This document shows positions 16,112-28,824 of a stretch of 64,000 nucleotides of DNA, one piece after another (position 1 is the first letter of the stretch; every line of letters begins with the position of its first letter). Origin of the DNA: Winogradskyella forsetii (GTDB lineage: Bacteria; Bacteroidota; Bacteroidia; Flavobacteriales; Flavobacteriaceae); assembly GCF_013394595.1 (NCBI RefSeq), contig NZ_CP053348.1, positions 1,886,001 through 1,950,000 on the forward strand, read 5' to 3'. Made by a program: the position numbers and the translations under genes. Below the pieces are notes generated by a model. It made no database searches, was not told the origin of the DNA, and saw nothing but the letters and a program-made list of their open reading frames with translations.

Positions 16112-17643
16112 TATTTCAGTTTTACTAGGGTAAATATTCTTTTAGAAACATTTCTAAATCCAAGACTCGATATGTAAATAATAGGTGTATATGCTACAAA
16201 CGCAATTACTAATATTTTGAAAGCATAAATGATTAAATTAAAGAGGTTTATGTCTCCCAAGATTAAGAATTTCTGAATTTCATAGCAAATATAAAATGGT
16301 AAAATCAACGACAATACTAAAATCAAAAATCTTTTCCAATAATGCCATAGGTTTTCCTTAAAGCCATGTTTATATAAAAAATAAGGTCTCCACAATAATA
16401 TAACAATTGAAAATGCGATTGTTGTTCCCATAAGAATACCAGCAAGATCAAAATAATGAAGTAAGATTATGGACATCCCTAAATTTATAATGCTCTGTGC
16501 AACTGGTGCCCAAATATCTTGGTACAATCCATAGGCATCTTTGAAGTGATCTACAGGAACTCTAATTTGCATTATGAACATATTCAAAAGAAACAATATT
16601 AAGACATATTTACTTAAAATGTAGGTCTTATCGGATAACCAAACTAAAATAAAAGGTTCCGTTACAAAATAAAGAACTATTATGGCTAAACCACCTATAT
16701 AAAATCGAAGCGCCATCATTTCCCAAAAAACTTTGTTAATATTCTTTTTGTCGTTCTCTGCTACTAAATTGCCTATTCCGGCAGCTGTACCCGCAAAAGC
16801 CGTATTTACTAATTGCAATAGTCTGCTAAATACTAACTCATAATTACCAAAAAAAGCTACCGTTTCAATACTTATAAAAACAAAAATCAATATTTGGTCT
16901 GTGCCACCTGTGACAAACGTTCCTAACTTGTGCAAAGAGATTTGCTTAACTTTTTTGATAATTTCAGGGTTGGTCTTTAAGATCGAATTTGTTGTCTTTT
17001 GATTGATCCCTAACCATGGATAAATTTGTTTTACTTTCCTTCTTAAAATATAACTATTAACTATATAGTATATCAATTCTAAGGTAATCCATCCATAAAC
17101 ACTTTGATAATAATACACTATGATGCATTGGAGTAAGATTTTTATCAAGTTTAAGGATTGTGAACTTGAAGTTATAACATAGTCCTTTTGATCCGCCTGA
17201 AGAAGAATAATATGGTAGTTGAAGAAAAAATTTAAACACATACCAAATAAGAATGTGTAATAGGTATAATAGACAACCGTTAACGGTGCATTAAGCGAAT
17301 CAAATATAATAGGGAAAAAACATGAAATTACGACTCCAACAATTATGATAAATAGCCCTATTTTTTTGTATAGATGGCCAAATAGACTGATTAGTTCATT
17401 AATTTTATGATGTTCTTTATTGAAAATTGGTTTATAGAGACTAAAACCAACAGCCGCACCGATACCCAATTCTGCTAAATTCAAAAAGCCCAGAAAACTT
17501 CTCAGCGTGCCTGAAAGTCCCATGAATTCATCTCCTAAATTATCTAAAAACAATTTTCTCGAAACAAATTGTAGAATCAAAAACGTAAGATAGAAAAACA
17601 TGCTAAACTTCATGTTTTTCAAGGCATGGTTTACTCTAGACAT
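16111..17643 (-). CDS. Oligosaccharide flippase, Wzx/MATE-like
   Basis: 510 aa with roughly 12-14 transmembrane helices. The N-terminus (NMKFSMFFYLTFLILQFVSR, then LGDEFMGLSGTLRSFLGFLNLAELGIGAAVGFSL) is typical of polysaccharide biosynthesis flippases. It would move undecaprenyl-pyrophosphate-linked repeat units across the inner membrane for the Wzy-like polymerase. It overlaps the GT2 gene upstream by 8 bp and the GT4 gene downstream by 1 bp. No unusual feature is seen. Confidence 0.9.
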   Translation of the reverse strand: MSRVNHALKNMKFSMFFYLTFLILQFVSRKLFLDNLGDEFMGLSGTLRSFLGFLNLAELGIGAAVGFSLYKPIFNKEHHKINELISLFGHLYKKIGLFIIIVGVVISCFFPIIFDSLNAPLTVVYYTYYTFLFGMCLNFFFNYHIILLQADQKDYVITSSSQSLNLIKILLQCIIVYYYQSVYGWITLELIYYIVNSYILRRKVKQIYPWLGINQKTTNSILKTNPEIIKKVKQISLHKLGTFVTGGTDQILIFVFISIETVAFFGNYELVFSRLLQLVNTAFAGTAAGIGNLVAENDKKNINKVFWEMMALRFYIGGLAIIVLYFVTEPFILVWLSDKTYILSKYVLILFLLNMFIMQIRVPVDHFKDAYGLYQDIWAPVAQSIINLGMSIILLHYFDLAGILMGTTIAFSIVILLWRPYFLYKHGFKENLWHYWKRFLILVLSLILPFYICYEIQKFLILGDINLFNLIIYAFKILVIAFVAYTPIIYISSLGFRNVSKRIFTLVKLK

Positions 17644-18646
17644 TTTGAAAAAGTTGAAATGTTTTACGCTGAATATTAATCCTTTCCTTATTTAGAGTCA
17701 GAAATATTTTGTACAGCAATGGTGGTAAAAACACAATGGCAAAACTATAAAACTGACTATTTTCTACTTTATAATGTTTTTTGATAGTATTTCGAATATT
17801 TTTACGATGTACACCGTTTTGATCGAGGTCAGTATTATAGTACAACGAATCATAATGATAAGTCAAAAACTTGCACAAATATTGTTTTGCTAAATCTTGT
17901 ATGTCTTTACCGTAATGAGCTGTATGTTCCACAACATAAGCTCCTGCGTTTATAGAATTTAATTTTTTTATTGAATAATCACTTCTAATAATACTGGTCA
18001 GGTTTTGAATATTGTAAACATAAAATTGATTTTCAAAATAACCGATATTAGAAATTTCATTTAAAATATCAATGGTATAATAAACATCTTGATGCAAAAT
18101 GCCTTCAATAAAAAATCGATCTTTTAGTATCGATTTATGGTATATTCTTCTCCAAACGGCAAATTCTGCATTACTAATTATTCTTCTTAAAGCTGAATGT
18201 CTGTCTTCAATTCTTGCATTTATTACGCTTTTTTCTGGTTCACCTGCTTCTACTAAATGAGAATGCGTAGAACTGGTCTCAACAACTTTTAAATCATTAG
18301 CGGTAGCGAATTTAATTAGTTCGTAAAACATATTTGGCTTTACCCAATCATCACTATCTACAAATCCAATAAAGTCGCCTTTGCTTTTTTTAAGTCCGTA
18401 ATTTCTTGCAATACTAGACCCACCATTACTAATATGATAAACCCTGATGCGTTTGTCTTTTAACGCATACTTATCACATATACTACCGCTCAAATCTGTT
18501 GACCCGTCATTAACCAGAATGACTTCTATATTTTTATGTGTTTGTTGAATGAGGGATTCAATACATCGGTCTAGGTATGACTCAACATTATAAACAGGAA
18601 CAATTATAGATATTAAAATGTTCATTTTTTCGATTTGGGTTAACAT
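17636..18646 (-). CDS. Glycosyltransferase family 2 (first gene of the minus-strand polysaccharide operon)
   Basis: 336 aa from the ATG at 18646; MNILISIIVPVYNVESYLD at residue 9 (start 18622) is an equally good start. GT-A motifs are VEVILVNDGSTDLSGSI-like and FIGFVDSDDWVKPNMF (DxD site). The SxSIVVPVYNxExYL type of start is common in EpsJ/WaaB-like enzymes of exopolysaccharide loci. It is the promoter-proximal gene of the run of overlapping genes; the 580-bp region upstream must hold their promoter, though no consensus box was found there. Confidence 0.88.
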   Translation of the reverse strand: MLTQIEKMNILISIIVPVYNVESYLDRCIESLIQQTHKNIEVILVNDGSTDLSGSICDKYALKDKRIRVYHISNGGSSIARNYGLKKSKGDFIGFVDSDDWVKPNMFYELIKFATANDLKVVETSSTHSHLVEAGEPEKSVINARIEDRHSALRRIISNAEFAVWRRIYHKSILKDRFFIEGILHQDVYYTIDILNEISNIGYFENQFYVYNIQNLTSIIRSDYSIKKLNSINAGAYVVEHTAHYGKDIQDLAKQYLCKFLTYHYDSLYYNTDLDQNGVHRKNIRNTIKKHYKVENSQFYSFAIVFLPPLLYKIFLTLNKERINIQRKTFQLFQNV

Positions 18647-19226: not shown

Positions 19227-22200
19227 ATGATTTTTTTTACTAAGCCTACTAACGCTTTTATAAAAGTAATTTTTGTTTTTTTATTATTTTTCTCAAATTT
19301 ATCAATACAGGCTCAGCTGCCTGCATTTCCCAGCGCAAAAGGAGCTGGCGCCTACACAACAGGTGGTCGCGGAGGTATAGTTGTTCATGTAACTAACCTT
19401 AATGCAAGCGGGCCAGGTAGCTTAAAAGCGGCCTTGACAATGACTGTGCCTAGAACAATAGTGTTTGATGTAAGTGGGATTATTTCAATAGATAAATTAC
19501 TTTATATAGGACCAGAGAGTGGCGATTTTACACTCGCTGGACAAACAGCCCCAGAAGGAGGAATCACAATTGCAGGAGGAAGAGTTTATTTTGCAGGTGT
19601 CACCAACTATATAATGCGTCATATTAGGTTTAAAGGTGGTTTTGAGGCAGATTGGGTACCTAATACAGGAGATAATTTAGGTTCAGCGTCTTTCTCAGCA
19701 GTCAGTGATATATATGAATCTATAATAGATCACTGTTCATTTGGTTTTGCTAAAACAATGCCTAATTGGGTTAAACAAGGTAGTCAAGTAGGACTTGTAG
19801 ATAAAACGACAATTCATAGATGCTTTTTTTCTGAGACAGTCAAAGGTGCTTTAATAGGTCAGGATGTTGATAATACGCCTTACTACTTATCAGGAGACAT
19901 GACATTCTCAAAGAATGTTTTTTATAATGTAAGATATAGAACTCCCAACATTACGGGTAATCATGGCCCAGGGAATTCATTTGATGTTATAAACAATTTA
20001 ACGTGGCAAGCACAAGGTCGGATAACAAGATCATCTGGAGATACAAATATAAATCAGTTAAATAATGCGACATATCAAGGATCCTTGCCACTTGGAGATA
20101 AAAATTTAAATCTATATTCAGAGGGCTGGAATCCTAAGATATATACCAGTGGAAATATAATAAATGCTCCAAATATCCATAGTACGTTATCAAATACTCT
20201 TGATGAGATGAATGCTGATAACACTTTAACTTGGAAATACTTTGTTGGTTCAAATTATGGTGTACAATTACCAGAAAGTTTTTTTATGAGCACGCCTTAT
20301 CCTATTAGAGGTATATCACAACCTATACTAGATGCAAGTGAATTGAGATTAACATTACCTAATGATGTTGGATGTAACGCAAGACTTAATGCGGATGGGA
20401 GTGTAAGTCCTAATTTAGATAGTTATGATGCTGAATATTTACAAAATATATTGAATAATGTCATGGTAACACCTATTGACAACTATTCACTTAATCCAAT
20501 ACCATCAGTAACCAGACCAGACAATTTTTACGCAAGTAACCCACACATCCCAGAAATTTGGTTTAATGCTAACGTACCCTCTGGTCAAAACCATAATGAT
20601 ATAGCTCCTAGCGGTTATACCTGGTTAGAAGAATATTTAAATCAAGTTGATAGTCCTACGAATTCTATTGGAGTTGAGAGTGTTGAAGTTACTCCGGCAA
20701 CTGAGGATCTTGAAATAACAGACACACTGCAATTAGCTACTACTTTTCTTCCATCAAATGCCACCAATACAAATGGAGTATGGACGTCAAGTGATCCGTC
20801 TATAGCAACAGTGGACAATAACGGTTTAGTGACACCTGGTACTACCACAGGTCTTGTTACAATTACTTTTACGAGTGATTATGACCCTAATATCTCCAAT
20901 TATTCCGAAATAACGGTTTTCGCTGAAGCGCTCGAGACGAGCGCAGGTATTGACCAACAGATTTGTGAAGGCGAAAGTGCCACCCTTGAAGCAAGTGGAG
21001 GTACAAACTATGTATGGAATAATGGAGAAACTACAGCTACTATCGAAGTAACGCCAGAGGTAACTACAACTTATACCGTAACAATTTCAGATGATTTCGG
21101 TCAATCTGAGGATGCTAGTGTTACAATCACGGTGAATGCCTTACCAATAGCATTGGCAGGTGAAGACCAATCGATATGTCAAGGTGAAACAGCTACTCTA
21201 ACTGCAACCGGTGGCACGTCATATTTATGGAGTACAGGTGAAACTACTGCATCCATTGAGGTAAGTCCAACAGAAGAGACTATTTATAGTGTAGAAGTAA
21301 GTGATGATAACTGTTCTAGTACAGATGAAGTTGCCGTTTTTGTAAATCAAGCTCCCGAATTAGTAATAACTGAAGATCTAGTTATTGTAGAAGGTGAATC
21401 CGCATTACTTACGGCTAGCGGTAGTGACAATTACGAATGGAGTACCGGAGAAACCACATATTCTATTACTGTAAATCCAACTGCTACTGAAACATATACA
21501 GTTACTACATTAGGTATTGGCAATTGCTTAAGTACTGCCGAAGTTACAGTCACAGTAATTCCAGTAGTAATTGCCAATGCAGGTCAAGATGTTACTATTT
21601 GTAATGGTGAAACCGTTACATTGTCTGCTACAGGAGGCTCAACTTACACATGGAGTACAGGGGATGTAGATTCTGAACTGATTGTTAGTCCAACGGAAAC
21701 TACGATATATACTGTTACCGTAGAAGATGACTATGGTTATACAGATACAGATGAAGTCACCATTTTTGTGAATGAAGCTCCAGAAATTACGATAACAGAA
21801 GACATTGTAATTGTTGAAGGTGAATCTGTGACACTTACAGCCACAGGTAGTGACAATTACGAATGGAACACAGGCGAGACTTCAGACTCTATTATAGTAA
21901 ACCCATTGGTTACAACGACATTTACGGTTAGTACTATTGGCGTTAATGGTTGTTCTAGTACTGCTGAGGTTATTGTTACGGTAATTCCAGTTGTAGTCGC
22001 CAATGCTGGTGAAGATATAACTATCTGTAGTGGAGAAACGGTTACATTAAACGCTACAGGTGGCTCTACTTATTTATGGAATACAGGAGTTACAGATGCT
22101 GAACTAATAGTAAATCCAATTGAAACTACAACTTACGTTGTTACTGTTGAAGATGATTATGGGTATACGGCTACAGATGAGGTTATCGTTTTTGTTAATG

Positions 22201-25200
22201 AAACACCTAACATGACCGTAAACGATACCGTCTATGTAATGATAGGAAACTCAGCTACTCTTTCAGCAAATGGCGCAAGTTCGTATTCTTGGAGTACCGG
22301 TGAAACTACAGCTGAAATTTTAGTAAGTCCTGAAGTCACTACTACATATACCGTTGTTGGTGAGGGAGATAACGGTTGCCAAACTACTGCAGATATTATC
22401 GTAACTGTTGTAGATCAATTAAATGCAAATGCAGGGCAGGATGTTTCAATTTGCTTAGGAGACTCTGTGACTTTAAACGCTTCTGGAGGGGTCACTTACA
22501 CTTGGAATACAGGCGGAACAGGTGCAACGCCAACTATGACACCTACTGAAACTACAACTTATACAGTTACCGTTGAAGATGGATTTGGTAATTCTGACTC
22601 GGATGAGGTGACGGTTACGGTTAACCCAGTTCCAACCGCTAATGCAGGTGAAGATCAAACGATTTGTCAAGGTGAAGCGGTTACATTGACTGCGTCTGCA
22701 GAAGGTGGTAATTCATACTTATGGAGTACAGGTGAAACAACGGCATCTATTACCGTAAATCCTACTGAGGATACAATTTATACAGTTGAAGTGTCTAATG
22801 ATTTCTGTTCACATAATGATGATGTAACGGTCTTCACATTACCAACTCCAGAATTAATTGTAAGTGATGATATTGTAATTGTGAATGGTAATTCTGCAAC
22901 TCTTGAAGTTTCAGGTGCTGACTCTTATTTATGGAATACAGGAGAGACTATAGGTTCTATAATAGTCAATCCAATAGAAACAACAACATACACCATCACA
23001 GGATTTTTAAATAATGGTTGTGAAAGTATGGCACAGGTTATTGTAACTGTAGTTCCTCAAGTGGTTGCCGATGCAGGTGATGATGTTACGATTTGTAATG
23101 GAGAAAGTATAACACTAAATGCTTTGGGAGGAGATAATTATTTATGGAATACTGGAGGTACAGAGGCGTCTCCAACTTTTAATCCAACCGAAACAACAAC
23201 TTATACAGTTACAGTAAGCGATAATTTCGGAAATTCAGACTCGGATAGTGTTACTGTTACAGTAAATGAATTACCGAATATGACATTGAGCGAGGATATA
23301 ACAATAATTGAAGGGGAAAATATAACTTTAACAGTGACTGGTGCAACTAATTATTTGTGGAATACAGGCGAAACTACCGATTCTATTGTTGTTAACCCTA
23401 TGCAAACTACAACTTATAGTGTCACTGGTTATTCAGCTGAGAATTGTGAGATTACAGAAGAGGTTACCGTTACTGTAATCCCAGAAGTAATTGCAAATGC
23501 TGGTAATGACGTTGCAATTTGTACAGGGGAAAGTATAACTTTAAGTGCTTCTGGTGGTGGAGGAACAAATTACTCTTGGAGCACAGGAGAAACAAGTTCT
23601 TCAATAATATTAACCCCAACCGAAACTGCAACCTATACGGTTACAGTAAGCGATAATTTCGGAAACTCAGACTCGGATAGTGTTACTGTTACAGTAAATG
23701 AATTACCAAATATAACCTTGAGTGATGACATAACAATATTTGAAGGAGAGAGCACAAACTTAACCGTAAGTGGAGCAGCAACCTATCTTTGGAGTACAGG
23801 AGAAACTTTAAGCTCAATAGTTGTGAACCCAACGGAAACCACAACTTATAGTGTAACAGGATTTTCAGATAGCAATTGTGAAGTTACAGAAGAAGTAACA
23901 GTTACAGTAATACCAGAATTGAATGCTAATGCTGGTAACGATATTTCTATTTGTATAGGTGAGATTGTGACATTAAATGCTTCAGGAGGTACTAACTATT
24001 CTTGGGACACTGGAGAAATAGGGCCATCAATAACCTTGATACCTTCAATGACTACGACCTATACGGTTACGGTAAGTGATGATTTCGGAAACTCGGATTC
24101 AGATAGTGTTACGATCACGGTAAATGAATTACCAAATATAACGGTAAGTGAAGACATTACAATCTTTGAAGGAGAGAGTGCAAACTTAACGGTAAGTGGA
24201 GCAGAAACGTACTTTTGGAATACGGGAGATACAAGTAATTCAATTGTTGTGAGTCCTGCACAAACAACAAGCTATACGGTTACTGGTTATTCTGAAAGTG
24301 AGTGTGAATCTACAGTAGAAGTTACAGTTACTGTGATACCAGAAGTCTTAGCAAATGCTGGTGATGATGTTGTTATTTGTATTGGCGAAAGTGTAACATT
24401 GAACGCATCTGGTGGTATTAATTATTCGTGGAATACTGGGGCAACCAGTCCAGATTTAACATTGAGCCCAACAGCGACGACAACGTACACTGTTACAGTA
24501 AGTGATAATTTTGGAAACTCTGATTCAGATAGTGTTACTGTTACGGTAAATGAATTACCAAGCATAACGGTTAGTGAAGATATTACAATCGTAGAAGGGG
24601 AAAGCAATAATTTAAGCGTAAATGGAGCGGATACATACCTTTGGAATACTGGAGAAACTACAAGCTCTATTGTAGTCAGCCCACAAGAAAACACAACTTA
24701 TACCGTTACAGGTTTTTCTACAAGTAATTGTGAAATTACAGAAGAAGTGATTGTAACAGTCATACCTGCACTTAACGCAAATGCTGGTAACGATGTTACT
24801 ATTTGTTTTGGAGAGAGTGTGACCTTAAATGCATCTGGTGGTACAAACTACTCATGGAACACAGGAGAAACCAATGCATCTATAACGTTGAGCCCAACAG
24901 AAACTGCAACATACACCGTTACAGTAAGTGATGATTTCGGAAACTCGGATTCTGATAGTGTTACAGTTATTGTTAATGAAATACCTATTTTAAACGTGAG
25001 TGAAAACATTACAATAATTGAAGGAGAAAGCACAACTTTAAGTGTAAATGGTGCAGAGACTTATGTTTGGAATACTGGAGAGACTTCTAGTTCAATTGCA
25101 GTAAGTCCATTACAAACTACTACATACAATGTTACAGGTTTCACAAACTCATGTAGTAGTGAACTGGCGCAAATAACAGTAACAGTAATACCAATATTCT

Positions 25201-26132
25201 CCGTTTCTGCTGGCGTGGATGAATATGTATGTGACAACCAGACTTATGAAGTGGAGTTAACTGCTAGTGAAGGTGACACGTATTTGTGGAGTACAGGAGA
25301 AACAACCCAAAGTATTGTAGTTAGCCCATTATCTACGACGTTATATACAGTAACAGTAATTCTTGATGGGCAAGAAGCTTCTGATGATGTTACAGTTAAT
25401 GTAGATCCGAGTCCTATTGTAGAGATAGCAAATGGAGAAAGTGTTGAAATATTAAATGGTGATTTTGTTACATTATCCGCTTCTGGGGCAAATACATATG
25501 AGTGGAATAATGGTGCAACACAACCCAATATTGCTGTAAGTCCATCTGTTACAACCACATATGAAGTTAGAGGATTTATAGGTGATTGTTATGACGAAAA
25601 ACAGGTTACCGTAAATGTATTGCAACCTGTTTTGGCAAATGCGGGTGAAGATGTCCTTATCTGTTTAGATGAAACAACAACATTAACGGCATCTGGAGGA
25701 GATGAATATGTCTGGAGTACAGGTGAAACTACACAGTCTATTCAAGTATCTCCGCAAGAAACAACGGATTACGTTGTTACTGTATTCAATGCTATGGATT
25801 TTGATGAAGCCACTGTTAGAGTAGAGGTTGATTTAAATTGTAATGAACAAATTGCTGATCCAACAGGAATTCCTAAAGATTTTAAACTTAATGTATATCC
25901 TAATCCAGCTTCAGATATTGTTAATATTAAATATTCTGGTGTGTTGGTTGTTTCAGATGTACATATTTATAATGTGACAGGAAAGTTAGTTCAACGTACT
26001 AAAATACTTAATGAGAATATCAGTACAAGTTCAACAAAGCAAATAGATATTAGTTCGCTTCAATCTGGAGTTTACTTCGTAAAACTGATAGGTGAAGAAA
26101 AAGACATTACGGAGAAGTTACTCGTTAAATAA
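19227..26132 (+). CDS. Giant secreted pectate-lyase-like protein with 23 Ig-like repeats and T9SS sorting domain
   Basis: 2301 aa. The layout is: signal peptide (about 1-30, ending IQAQ); a right-handed beta-helix lyase-like domain (about 31-475) with FPSAKGAGAYTTGGRGG, ASGPGSLKAAL, FTLAGQTAPEGGITIAGG, SIIDHCSFGF, KGALIG and the YRTPNITG region expected near a PL1-type catalytic Arg; a BIG2-like Ig domain (about 480-566, VWTSSDPSIATVDNNGLVTPG); 23 tandem Ig/PKD-like repeats of about 71 aa (about 569-2205); and a type A T9SS sorting domain (about 2222-2301, LNVYPNPASDIVNI ... GVYFVKLIGEE). It is therefore exported and anchored or released at the cell surface. It may degrade or bind pectin-like uronic-acid polymers, or form an extended surface fibre. 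Catalytic activity is inferred from fold motifs only. A strong terminator follows. Confidence 0.88.
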   Translation: MIFFTKPTNAFIKVIFVFLLFFSNLSIQAQLPAFPSAKGAGAYTTGGRGGIVVHVTNLNASGPGSLKAALTMTVPRTIVFDVSGIISIDKLLYIGPESGDFTLAGQTAPEGGITIAGGRVYFAGVTNYIMRHIRFKGGFEADWVPNTGDNLGSASFSAVSDIYESIIDHCSFGFAKTMPNWVKQGSQVGLVDKTTIHRCFFSETVKGALIGQDVDNTPYYLSGDMTFSKNVFYNVRYRTPNITGNHGPGNSFDVINNLTWQAQGRITRSSGDTNINQLNNATYQGSLPLGDKNLNLYSEGWNPKIYTSGNIINAPNIHSTLSNTLDEMNADNTLTWKYFVGSNYGVQLPESFFMSTPYPIRGISQPILDASELRLTLPNDVGCNARLNADGSVSPNLDSYDAEYLQNILNNVMVTPIDNYSLNPIPSVTRPDNFYASNPHIPEIWFNANVPSGQNHNDIAPSGYTWLEEYLNQVDSPTNSIGVESVEVTPATEDLEITDTLQLATTFLPSNATNTNGVWTSSDPSIATVDNNGLVTPGTTTGLVTITFTSDYDPNISNYSEITVFAEALETSAGIDQQICEGESATLEASGGTNYVWNNGETTATIEVTPEVTTTYTVTISDDFGQSEDASVTITVNALPIALAGEDQSICQGETATLTATGGTSYLWSTGETTASIEVSPTEETIYSVEVSDDNCSSTDEVAVFVNQAPELVITEDLVIVEGESALLTASGSDNYEWSTGETTYSITVNPTATETYTVTTLGIGNCLSTAEVTVTVIPVVIANAGQDVTICNGETVTLSATGGSTYTWSTGDVDSELIVSPTETTIYTVTVEDDYGYTDTDEVTIFVNEAPEITITEDIVIVEGESVTLTATGSDNYEWNTGETSDSIIVNPLVTTTFTVSTIGVNGCSSTAEVIVTVIPVVVANAGEDITICSGETVTLNATGGSTYLWNTGVTDAELIVNPIETTTYVVTVEDDYGYTATDEVIVFVNETPNMTVNDTVYVMIGNSATLSANGASSYSWSTGETTAEILVSPEVTTTYTVVGEGDNGCQTTADIIVTVVDQLNANAGQDVSICLGDSVTLNASGGVTYTWNTGGTGATPTMTPTETTTYTVTVEDGFGNSDSDEVTVTVNPVPTANAGEDQTICQGEAVTLTASAEGGNSYLWSTGETTASITVNPTEDTIYTVEVSNDFCSHNDDVTVFTLPTPELIVSDDIVIVNGNSATLEVSGADSYLWNTGETIGSIIVNPIETTTYTITGFLNNGCESMAQVIVTVVPQVVADAGDDVTICNGESITLNALGGDNYLWNTGGTEASPTFNPTETTTYTVTVSDNFGNSDSDSVTVTVNELPNMTLSEDITIIEGENITLTVTGATNYLWNTGETTDSIVVNPMQTTTYSVTGYSAENCEITEEVTVTVIPEVIANAGNDVAICTGESITLSASGGGGTNYSWSTGETSSSIILTPTETATYTVTVSDNFGNSDSDSVTVTVNELPNITLSDDITIFEGESTNLTVSGAATYLWSTGETLSSIVVNPTETTTYSVTGFSDSNCEVTEEVTVTVIPELNANAGNDISICIGEIVTLNASGGTNYSWDTGEIGPSITLIPSMTTTYTVTVSDDFGNSDSDSVTITVNELPNITVSEDITIFEGESANLTVSGAETYFWNTGDTSNSIVVSPAQTTSYTVTGYSESECESTVEVTVTVIPEVLANAGDDVVICIGESVTLNASGGINYSWNTGATSPDLTLSPTATTTYTVTVSDNFGNSDSDSVTVTVNELPSITVSEDITIVEGESNNLSVNGADTYLWNTGETTSSIVVSPQENTTYTVTGFSTSNCEITEEVIVTVIPALNANAGNDVTICFGESVTLNASGGTNYSWNTGETNASITLSPTETATYTVTVSDDFGNSDSDSVTVIVNEIPILNVSENITIIEGESTTLSVNGAETYVWNTGETSSSIAVSPLQTTTYNVTGFTNSCSSELAQITVTVIPIFSVSAGVDEYVCDNQTYEVELTASEGDTYLWSTGETTQSIVVSPLSTTLYTVTVILDGQEASDDVTVNVDPSPIVEIANGESVEILNGDFVTLSASGANTYEWNNGATQPNIAVSPSVTTTYEVRGFIGDCYDEKQVTVNVLQPVLANAGEDVLICLDETTTLTASGGDEYVWSTGETTQSIQVSPQETTDYVVTVFNAMDFDEATVRVEVDLNCNEQIADPTGIPKDFKLNVYPNPASDIVNIKYSGVLVVSDVHIYNVTGKLVQRTKILNENISTSSTKQIDISSLQSGVYFVKLIGEEKDITEKLLVK
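20934..25850 (+). repeat. 23 tandem Ig-like repeats of about 71 codons (alternating A and B types)
   Basis: This is internal coding repetition. An A-type unit (AGxDxxICxGExVTLxASGGxxY then W.TGE..) alternates with a B-type unit (xITVSEDITIxEGE then W.TGETxxSIVV), giving a period of 142 codons (426 bp; for example, GCC AAT GC at 21573 and 21999). A-type units have one Cys near residue 8; B-type units have one Cys near residue 57; units 2 and 9 have both. Units 11-19 are the most alike: long stretches such as the codons for SDNFGNSDSDSVTVTVNELP are nearly identical at the DNA level, indicating recent duplication or gene conversion. Confidence 0.9.
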
Positions 26133-26232: not shown

Positions 26233-27255
26233 CTAGGAGCCAATTAGGGCACGACCTATTTTTAATTTCATCAGTAAGTTTCCTAAAAACAATGAAATTC
26301 CCATTGAAAGTATAAAAGCCAATGATATAGCAAACACTATTGGCATTTTTTGCACAAAAAGAAAAGTGAAAAAAACCTTCAGTAATGGCTCATGGATTAA
26401 ATAGAGATAATAACTATTATGATTTATATAAGATATTACGGGCTTAATTTTTGACACGAATTTGACATATTTTACGGTAACGATGTTTAAGAATCCATAA
26501 ATGAAACACAATGCCAAAATACTTAAGACTAGAAGAAATTTGGAAATACCGAATAAAACATACTTATTTTCAAATACATTAATAGCATAAAAATAGATTC
26601 CAAAAAGAAATAAATGCATTAAAAACAAGACTAATACTTTTTCTTTTAAATAACCCAAAATTTCAGTAGAATACTTATTAAATAGATTGCCCATTTGAAA
26701 GAAAATAAAATACTTACAAACCAGAGCTAGAGGCTGAAGGTTTATGTAACTTAAGGGTAACACTAGCATATATAAAAAAACACCAAGAAGAATGCTAAAA
26801 ATATAATGCTTGCAAAGAAAGTTTTCAAATTTATAATACAAAAGAAACATTACGAACATCATTAATAGAAACCATAAATGTCCAGCTCCAGTCCACATGT
26901 GGGATAAAAATGAAAGCATGGAGTCATAGTCCAATAAAAAATAAATGTAAATTGGAGCTAATATTAAATAGGGTACAATTAAACGTCGTGATTTTTTCTT
27001 AAAAAGTGTTTTGTAATCTGAATATTTACCGTAATTATTTCTCAGAAAATAGTAGATATAGCCAGAGATAAAAACAAAGAGCGGCATTGAAATAGTAGAA
27101 ATATACTTTCCTAAGCAATCTGCAATAATGTTATATTCATAATATTTACTCACATCCCAACTTCTTCTAAAAGGTGAGAAGGAATGCCTTAGAACAACCA
27201 AAGTGATTCCAACTGCTCTTAGCAAATTCATGTGACTCAAATCTTTCTTTAGCAT
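26233..27255 (-). CDS. Acyltransferase family 3 membrane protein
   Basis: 340 aa with about ten hydrophobic helices. The N-terminus shows NLLRAVGITLVVLRHSF, where the Arg/His pair (LRHSF) is the usual catalytic-site signature of the OafA/NodX acyltransferase-3 family. Further on come PLFVFISGYIYY and GHLWFLLMMF. Such proteins O-acetylate or O-succinylate surface glycans. It lies between the giant lyase and ugd, near the polysaccharide locus, so decoration of that polymer is a reasonable guess. ATG at 27255; MNLLRAV at residue 9 is an alternative. Confidence 0.85.
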   Translation of the reverse strand: MLKKDLSHMNLLRAVGITLVVLRHSFSPFRRSWDVSKYYEYNIIADCLGKYISTISMPLFVFISGYIYYFLRNNYGKYSDYKTLFKKKSRRLIVPYLILAPIYIYFLLDYDSMLSFLSHMWTGAGHLWFLLMMFVMFLLYYKFENFLCKHYIFSILLGVFLYMLVLPLSYINLQPLALVCKYFIFFQMGNLFNKYSTEILGYLKEKVLVLFLMHLFLFGIYFYAINVFENKYVLFGISKFLLVLSILALCFIYGFLNIVTVKYVKFVSKIKPVISYINHNSYYLYLIHEPLLKVFFTFLFVQKMPIVFAISLAFILSMGISLFLGNLLMKLKIGRALIGS

Positions 27256-27444: not shown

Positions 27445-28824
27445 TTACTTCCCTATAGAAGAATATTCAAACCCTATAGCTGCCATTTCTTTTTGATCTA
27501 ATATATTTCTACCATCAAAAATAAAGGCAGGTTTCTTCATATTGTCATATATTTTTTGCCAATCGTAGGTTTTGAACTCATCCCATTCTGTCATAATAGC
27601 TATGGCATGGGCATCTTTAATAGCTTCATACGGATTTTCAAAAGAAGTGACAAGTTCTTTATTTTCCTCTTTAGATCTTGTGTTAAGATAGTTAAGATCG
27701 GCTTGTACCTTTATATCGTTTACTTTTGGATCGTATACAGCAATATGAGCTTGTTCATTCAACAAATGATCTGCAACGTAAATCGCAGCAGATTCCCTGG
27801 TGTCATTGGTGTCCTTCTTAAAAGCCCAACCTAACATGGCAATTTTTTTACCAGAAACAGTATTGTATAATGTGCTTATTAGATTATCAGAAAAACGTTG
27901 TTTTTGATGATCGTTTAGAATAATAACTTGTTCCCAATAGTCGGCAACGGCATTAAGACCATAACTTCTAGCAATATAAACAAGATTCAAGATGTCTTTC
28001 TGAAAACAAGACCCACCAAAACCAATTGAAGCGTTTAAAAATTTTGGTCCAATTCTAGAATCCATACCAATTGCTTTAGCAACTTCGTTTACATTGGCTT
28101 CTGTATGTTCGCATAATTCAGAAATGGCATTTATCGAAGAAATCCTTTGTGCTAAAAACGCATTAGCAGTCAATTTTGACAATTCAGATGACCAAACATT
28201 GGTTCTCAAAATCCGTTCTTGTGGAACCCAACTTCCATAAACATTTGCCAAGCTTTCTATGGCTTCTTCTGATTCGCCTCCAATCAAAACACGATCTGGA
28301 TTTAACAAATCTTGAATAGCTGTCCCTTCAGCTAAAAATTCTGGATTGGATAAAATGCTAAAATTAACATCACTTCCTGTATTGTGTAAAATACTTTTTA
28401 TCGCTTGAGCCGTCCTCACAGGTAACGTAGATTTTTCTACTACAATTTTATCAGTTGTTGCAACCTCAGCAATGTTTCGAGCACATAATTCCACGTACTT
28501 CAAATCCGCAGCCATACCTTTACCTTTACCATAAGTTTTGGTCGGTGTATTAACCGAAATAAAAATCATTTCAGATTCTTGAATCGTTTTGTCTATTTCT
28601 GTTGAAAAAAACAGGTTTTTTCCTCTGGTTTGTTCAACAATTTCTGCCAAACCTGGTTCGTAAATAGGTAATTTTGAAACGTCTTTGTCGTTCCAAGCTG
28701 CGATGCGTTCTGCATTTATATCAACGATAGTAACTTTTATATTCGGATTCTTTTTTGCAATTACTGCCATTGTAGGTCCACCTACATAACCAGCTCCAAT
28801 ACAACAAATTTTTGTGATTTTCAT
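27445..28824 (-). CDS. ugd: UDP-glucose 6-dehydrogenase
   Basis: 459 aa. The NAD-binding motif is [15 protein letters not shown] at the N-terminus, and the catalytic Cys lies in [14 protein letters not shown] (about residue 272). Other signatures are [20 protein letters not shown] and [27 protein letters not shown] is in the C-terminal UDP-binding domain. The length and the GGPT variant match the longer eukaryote-like UGD subgroup. It oxidises UDP-glucose to UDP-glucuronate, the substrate of the epimerase encoded just upstream on the same strand, so the pair should provide UDP-GlcA and UDP-GalA for the polysaccharide locus. Confidence 0.95.

What the first reader, a model, noticed from the sequence alone, without database searches (positions are those of the whole stretch)
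20934..25850. Cysteines in the 23 Ig-like repeats follow a strict i to i+1 rule, predicting disulfides between neighbouring domains
Two Cys positions exist: an N-type (ICxGE, before the A-B turn) and a C-type (F-G loop, as in SNCEITEE). N-type occurs in repeats 1,2,4,6,8,9,11,13,15,17,19,21,23. C-type occurs in 2,3,5,7,9,10,12,14,16,18,20,22. Every repeat with an N-type Cys is followed by one with a C-type Cys, and no other repeat has a C-type Cys. Even the irregular repeats 2 and 9, which carry both, obey it (1-2, 2-3 and 8-9, 9-10). After repeat 23 a lone Cys sits in DLNCNEQ, where repeat 24 would begin. In an Ig-like fold the A-B turn is at the bottom of domain i and the F-G loop at the top of domain i+1, so the two would touch. 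This would give an extended, disulfide-stapled rod on the cell surface. I know of no description of it, but cannot search.
Basis: partly seen in the sequence, partly recalled or inferred. Interest (0 to 1): 0.7.

Follow-up and report, generated by a model that had tools for sequence, protein, structure and literature searches.

The report
Cysteine code linking neighbouring Ig domains
A long bacterial surface protein built from 23 similar beads appears to be held together by sulphur bonds between one bead and the next, and the same pairing rule is kept in many related surface proteins of other bacteria.

Summary
ORF 19227-26132 (2301 aa; pectate-lyase-like N-part, Big_2, 23 Ig_7-like repeats, T9SS type A tail) carries 13 N-type and 12 C-type Cys exactly as listed, plus one Cys after repeat 23; the 26 array Cys pair as N(i)-C(i+1) or N(23)-cap with none left over. 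The rule is not peculiar to this protein. In 120 long proteins (this one and 119 homologues) N(i) and C(i+1) agree in 2738 of 2743 scorable neighbouring pairs, in 120 shorter ones in 521 of 523; 0 of 2645 N-type Cys lacked a partner in a scorable next domain. Position 17 of domain i and 63 of domain i+1 covary most strongly of all pairs tested; on a tree 13 of 15 changes of the first coincide with changes of the second. Before a short C-terminal tail, arrays ending in an N-type Cys have a cap Cys in 130 of 132 cases, arrays without one in 0 of 8. Best reading: interdomain disulfides. In the window 12 of 22 junctions would be stapled; the rest have a different, hydrophobic junction. S-S distances could not be measured; the solved relative GhpA could settle it. 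No description was seen in the search listings.

The parts
19227..26132 (+). whole gene, 2301 aa secreted multidomain protein
19299..19832 (+). pectate-lyase-like N-terminal part (aa 25-202)
   Evidence: NF041900 E 2.5e-23 but far below its cut-off; PDB 9buj pectate lyase E 2.7e-15
20673..20879 (+). Big_2 domain (aa 483-551), no Cys, before repeat 1
20916..25859 (+). 23 Ig_7-like repeats and the residues just after, order N B C N C N C N B C N C N C N C N C N C N C N (N = N-type Cys only, C = C-type only, B = both)
20964..21314 (+). proposed pair Cys580-Cys696, repeats 1-2
21177..21527 (+). proposed pair Cys651-Cys767, repeats 2-3
21600..21953 (+). proposed pair Cys792-Cys909, repeats 4-5
22026..22379 (+). 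proposed pair Cys934-Cys1051, repeats 6-7
22452..22808 (+). proposed pair Cys1076-Cys1194, repeats 8-9
22665..23021 (+). proposed pair Cys1147-Cys1265, repeats 9-10
23094..23447 (+). proposed pair Cys1290-Cys1407, repeats 11-12
23520..23879 (+). proposed pair Cys1432-Cys1551, repeats 13-14
23952..24305 (+). proposed pair Cys1576-Cys1693, repeats 15-16
24378..24731 (+). proposed pair Cys1718-Cys1835, repeats 17-18
24804..25154 (+). proposed pair Cys1860-Cys1976, repeats 19-20
25230..25589 (+). proposed pair Cys2002-Cys2121, repeats 21-22
25662..25841 (+). proposed cap pair Cys2146 (repeat 23) - Cys2205 (just after repeat 23)
   Evidence: cap Cys present in the 4 relatives aligned and in 130 of 132 arrays that end in an N-type Cys before a short tail
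25893..26129 (+). T9SS type A sorting domain (aa 2223-2301)
   Evidence: TIGR04183 47.6 bits, cut-off 23; PF18962 60.1 bits, cut-off 27

Best explanation
The array is a surface stalk of Ig-like domains in which the Cys at the A-B turn of one domain bonds to the Cys at the start of the last strand (F-G turn) of the next domain, so that neighbouring domains are joined by a disulfide as well as by the peptide linker. N starts a stapled block, B (both Cys) continues it, C ends it; the last N is closed by a cap Cys straight after the array. Blocks in this protein: 3-2-2-3-2-2-2-2-2-2 domains plus a capped last domain. Junctions between blocks lack the staple and instead tend to have a hydrophobic residue at position 17, a hydrophobic linker residue at position 6 and often an aromatic residue at 61. 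Shown: the Cys rule, its conservation, covariation and co-change, and the two junction types. Inferred: that the bonds are disulfides, that they stiffen the stalk and protect it, and that the stalk holds the pectate-lyase-like head away from the cell after T9SS export.
For: N(i)-C(i+1) agree in 2738 of 2743 and 521 of 523 scorable pairs; 0 of 2645 N-type Cys lack a C-type partner. Covariation of 17(i) with 63(i+1) is the highest of all pairs at least 4 columns apart, z 19.6 among interdomain pairs, same-domain 17-63 about -0.04. 13 changes fall on the same branch in the same direction (of 15 and 14), 0 for the same-domain pair. Cap: 130 of 132 with N-type Cys last, 0 of 8 without. Set 1 blocks of 4 or more domains: where the first domain has a C-type Cys 58 of 60 have a Cys in the 90 aa before it, otherwise 10 of 71. 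In frames from 11 other genomes 12 of 20 scorable tails have a Cys 110-130 aa after the last N-type Cys, and in 8 of these it is the only Cys left, at 117-125 aa, close to the spacing inside arrays. The AlphaFold2 model of repeats 1-5 (pLDDT 93, pTM 0.59) has N-type Cys at the end of the first strand and C-type Cys at, or one residue before, the start of the last strand of a domain. The own genome has one DSBA-family match, with CSWC and by eye a signal-like N-terminus.
Against: No S-S distance or mass spectrum: the predictor gave no coordinates. 7 C-type Cys have no N-type Cys at the expected place. In type B (CHU_C) proteins 6 of 7 arrays that end without an N-type Cys still have a Cys before the sorting domain; 4 of these 6 have a second Cys close by in that domain, 2 do not. 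In 8 of 20 distant tails no Cys lies 110-130 aa after the last N-type Cys, and in two more (L033, L034, near copies) the match at 111 is one of seven Cys. In set 1 blocks 9 of 134 that end in an N-type Cys have no Cys within 20 aa. One event on the tree carries 581 of 2759 tips, and 5 of the 13 co-changes involve the single protein P0057. No VKOR was found in the genome. The five-domain fold match to GhpA is loose (TM about 0.5, rmsd 8-10 angstrom).
Confidence: 0.9

Rival explanations
1. Ordinary intradomain disulfide: each domain bonds its own N-type and C-type Cys, and the pattern in the window is decay.
For: In relatives taken from other genomes of the phylum both Cys occur in 121 of 124 scorable domains.
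Against: In mixed arrays same-domain agreement is 172 of 1249 (phi -0.757) and 27 of 317 (phi -0.843); no same-domain co-change; in the model one site ends the first strand and the other begins the last strand, which in an Ig fold as generally known are opposite ends of the domain.
Confidence: 0.02
2. Chance plus history: a two-domain unit with alternating Cys was duplicated many times, so the rule is copied, not selected.
For: Repeats alternate with a mostly two-domain period and one tree event explains 581 of 2759 tips.
Against: Irregular blocks of 2 to 6 domains obey it, 13 same-branch co-changes, the cap follows the state of the last domain, and 8 distant arrays show a lone partner Cys in an unlike terminal domain.
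Confidence: 0.05
3. Cysteines bond between two chains lying side by side on the cell surface.
For: Not excluded by sequence.
Against: An offset of exactly one domain, a cap Cys in the same chain and covariation of 17 with linker positions 3, 5 and 6 of domain i+1 point to the same chain.
Confidence: 0.03

Closest known systems
GhpA, grappling hook protein of Aureispira sp. CCB-QB1 (PDB 9flp, 9fls, 9flu, 9flv, 9flw, 9flx, 9fly, 9g8b)
   Different: Part of a hook, with other lengths and heads; both Cys in the domains I could read, so every junction there would be stapled. Its paper was not found in the library and not read; whether it reports these bonds is unknown to me.
Siglecs (CD33 and others)
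   Same: An interdomain disulfide involving the C2-set domain is known (one passage of PMC7426717 on C169 of Siglec-3).
   Different: Animal proteins with, as I recall, one such bond between the V-set and the first C2-set domain; no repeating start-continue-end code.
Mobiluncus mulieris giant adhesin (PMC10619420, passages seen)
   Same: Very long Ig-like stalk with covalent cross-links.
   Different: The cross-links described are intramolecular within a domain, including a disulfide joining two adjacent strands of one sheet.

Membership tests
Ig_7, PF19081 | score over Pfam cut-off | tested here: met
   86.4 bits against 27.3 for the whole protein
T9SS type A cargo | C-terminal sorting domain over cut-off | tested here: met
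   TIGR04183 47.6 bits against 23
pectate lyase PelZ | score over NCBIfam equivalog cut-off | tested here: not met
   82.6 bits against 840, residues 25-202 only
tandem Ig domains joined by interdomain disulfides | Cys of neighbouring domains present together and lost together | tested here: met
tandem Ig domains joined by interdomain disulfides | S-S bond shown by structure or chemistry | not testable with these tools
   no coordinates returned
GhpA-like stalk | same repeated fold in tandem | tested here: met

The most novel reading that the evidence does not exclude
Bacteroidota use a general cysteine code, start (N), continue (B), stop (C) and cap, to write disulfide-stapled rigid blocks and unstapled hinges into long T9SS-exported stalks; the widespread ICxG...GC pair of these Ig-like repeats, easily taken for an intradomain bond, is an interdomain one throughout the phylum.
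Probability: 0.6. Interest if true: 0.75.

Novelty: new variant of a known kind. Interest (0 to 1): 0.65.

Why it matters
Many proteins carry these repeats (6436 of 7996 scored candidates had E <= 0.001; the both-Cys domain was found in 22 of 61 genomes drawn across the phylum, own genome included). If their two conserved cysteines bond across domain borders, the stiffness and hinge places of a stalk could be read from sequence, and the role of periplasmic oxidation before T9SS export becomes directly testable. The deposited GhpA maps could confirm or refute it at once.

Tried and rejected
Cys-Cys distances: two AlphaFold2 jobs ran but return no coordinates, and no model file was in the script folder after the first of them. 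The second model (repeats 21-23 and tail, 5 sequences, pLDDT 80, pTM 0.47, residues 222-231 just after the cap Cys under 50) is too weak to judge the cap.

Raw counts before truncated domains were set aside were lower: 2778 of 2830 and 541 of 593. The 87 and 70 junctions dropped are those where the model did not cover a site. 41 of them follow an N-type Cys and were printed; by eye 17 show a Cys in place within 25 aa past the match, 12 are split by an inserted stretch, and 12 end at or near the end of the sequence, look broken or are unclear.

VKOR in the genome: none. The own genome's other Ig-like proteins (L019, L020) were read by eye only; the blanked model listed no match in them.

Literature: ten searches (for this question, 62 for Siglecs). 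I saw listings with the start of each abstract, and passages of three papers; several searches had more papers than were listed. Nothing listed described such bonds in bacterial Ig arrays. The library lacks most subscription papers, and the GhpA paper was not found in it, so absence from print is not shown.

Full report
What it is. The gene at 19227-26132 (+) encodes 2301 aa: a pectate-lyase-like N-terminal part, one Big_2 domain, 23 Ig_7-like repeats and a T9SS type A sorting domain. Many of the best named homologues are Winogradskyella proteins. The N-terminal part does not reach the PelZ cut-off, and I did not test for catalytic residues.

Observation. Three more Cys lie in the N-terminal part.

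Homologues. Set 1 is the 120 proteins listed of 6436 hits, the window's own protein included; set 2 is the 120 listed of 1751 hits to a profile of five repeats. Members of a set are related to each other. A model built from the window's repeats found 3036 domains in set 1 and 721 in set 2. Where the model covers both sites, N(i) and C(i+1) agree in 2738 of 2743 and 521 of 523 pairs; 87 and 70 pairs were dropped as not covered. N without C did not occur (0 of 2251 and 0 of 394); C without N occurred 5 and 2 times. In arrays with under 60% both-Cys domains (71 and 63 proteins) the counts are 1174 of 1175 and 253 of 254, while same-domain agreement is 172 of 1249 and 27 of 317. Among offsets -4 to +4, i+1 gives phi 0.998 and 0.992; the next best, i+3, gives 0.530 and 0.739. 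N-to-C spacing is 108-136 aa in 2645 pairs, mostly 115-119.

Independent events. In 2842 two-domain segments (effective number 1228 at 70% identity) the pair 17(i)-63(i+1) has the highest covariation of all pairs at least 4 columns apart. 17(i) also covaries with linker positions 3, 5 and 6 of domain i+1, which fits contact at the junction. On a tree of 2759 distinct segments with the Cys columns left out, 13 of 15 changes at 17(i) coincide with a change at 63(i+1) (14 in all); none coincide with a same-domain change. One of the 13 covers 581 tips in 135 proteins, the others 1-3 tips each, and 5 of the 13 involve one protein, P0057. The number of independent events is thus about a dozen, not thousands.

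Ends of arrays. In both sets together, tails of 60-125 aa without a type B motif (most are type A sorting domains; the tail class was set by length, not by a domain search) follow arrays of 4 or more domains in 141 proteins: a Cys lies within 25 aa in 130 of 132 that end in an N-type Cys, in 0 of 8 that do not, and not in 1 of unknown state; 20 proteins with fewer than 4 final domains and 69 with other tails were left out. In the two misses the match to the last domain is truncated or the tail is unusual. An earlier count on set 1 blocks gave 125 of 134 and 0 of 6 within 20 aa. For type B tails the simple rule fails: a Cys before the sorting domain in 3 of 3 arrays ending in an N-type Cys but also in 6 of 7 that do not. 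Set 1 blocks whose first domain has a C-type Cys have a Cys in the 90 aa before it in 58 of 60 cases, others in 10 of 71; 9 blocks too near the start were left out.

Distant genomes. The both-Cys domain was found in 22 of 61 genomes across the phylum, own genome included. From 11 other genomes 20 stretches were taken; a model with the Cys sites blanked found the domain in 26 open frames. Of 124 scorable domains 121 have both Cys, and 81 of 82 scorable junctions agree, which alone cannot tell intra- from interdomain bonds. The ends can: of 20 frames with a known last N-type Cys and more than 100 aa left, 12 have a Cys 110-130 aa downstream, and in 8 of these it is the only Cys in the tail, at 117-125 aa, in a terminal stretch that the model did not recognise. 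Two of the 12 (L033, L034) are near copies with seven Cys in the tail, and 8 of 20 have none in that range.

Two kinds of junction. In 2195 stapled pairs position 17 is Cys, linker position 6 is Pro in 79% and position 3 Asn in 63%. In 606 unstapled pairs position 17 is V, M, I, L or F in about 71%, position 6 is V, L, I or F in 97%, position 61 Y or F in 43% and position 65 Asp in 79%. The window's own linkers look alike. Closed blocks N B* C count 456 of two domains, 164 of three and 5 of four to six.

Mechanism. Shown: Cys rule, co-loss, cap before short tails, junction types. Inferred: disulfides form in the periplasm, perhaps with the DSBA-family protein found, before T9SS export; the stapled blocks stiffen the stalk that carries the head. 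A precedent for an interdomain bond between Ig domains exists in Siglec-3 (one passage). A 2025 paper reports disulfides linking gliding and T9SS components (start of abstract and one passage of PMC12635249), so disulfides in this envelope are not unusual.

Verdict. Direct proof of the bonds is missing.

Noticed in passing
window 17636-18646 (-), 26233-27255 (-), 27445-28824 (-): The gene is flanked by what look, from the sequences and recalled motifs, like a glycosyltransferase, an acyltransferase and a UDP-glucose dehydrogenase, that is a polysaccharide locus on the other strand.
   Followed up: no
L020 (own genome 3133500-3143500): A 2363 aa frame with 60 Cys and a different Ig-like repeat in which, by eye, repeats also show one Cys early and one late; it seems to end in a type B sorting domain.
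   Followed up: partly
P0016, P0046, P0076, P0087: About 310 aa inserted inside an Ig repeat, the N-type half before and the C-type half after the insert, with extra Cys in the halves.
   Followed up: partly
L023 (own genome 1985300-1986500): DSBA-family protein (265 aa frame) with CSWC and a signal-like N-terminus, about 36 kb beyond the window.
   Followed up: partly
L001-L004: Related genes in named Winogradskyella and near relatives have 6, 11, 23 and 23 repeats with the same start (NBCNC) and a capped N-type end, so the array seems to grow and shrink inside.
   Followed up: partly
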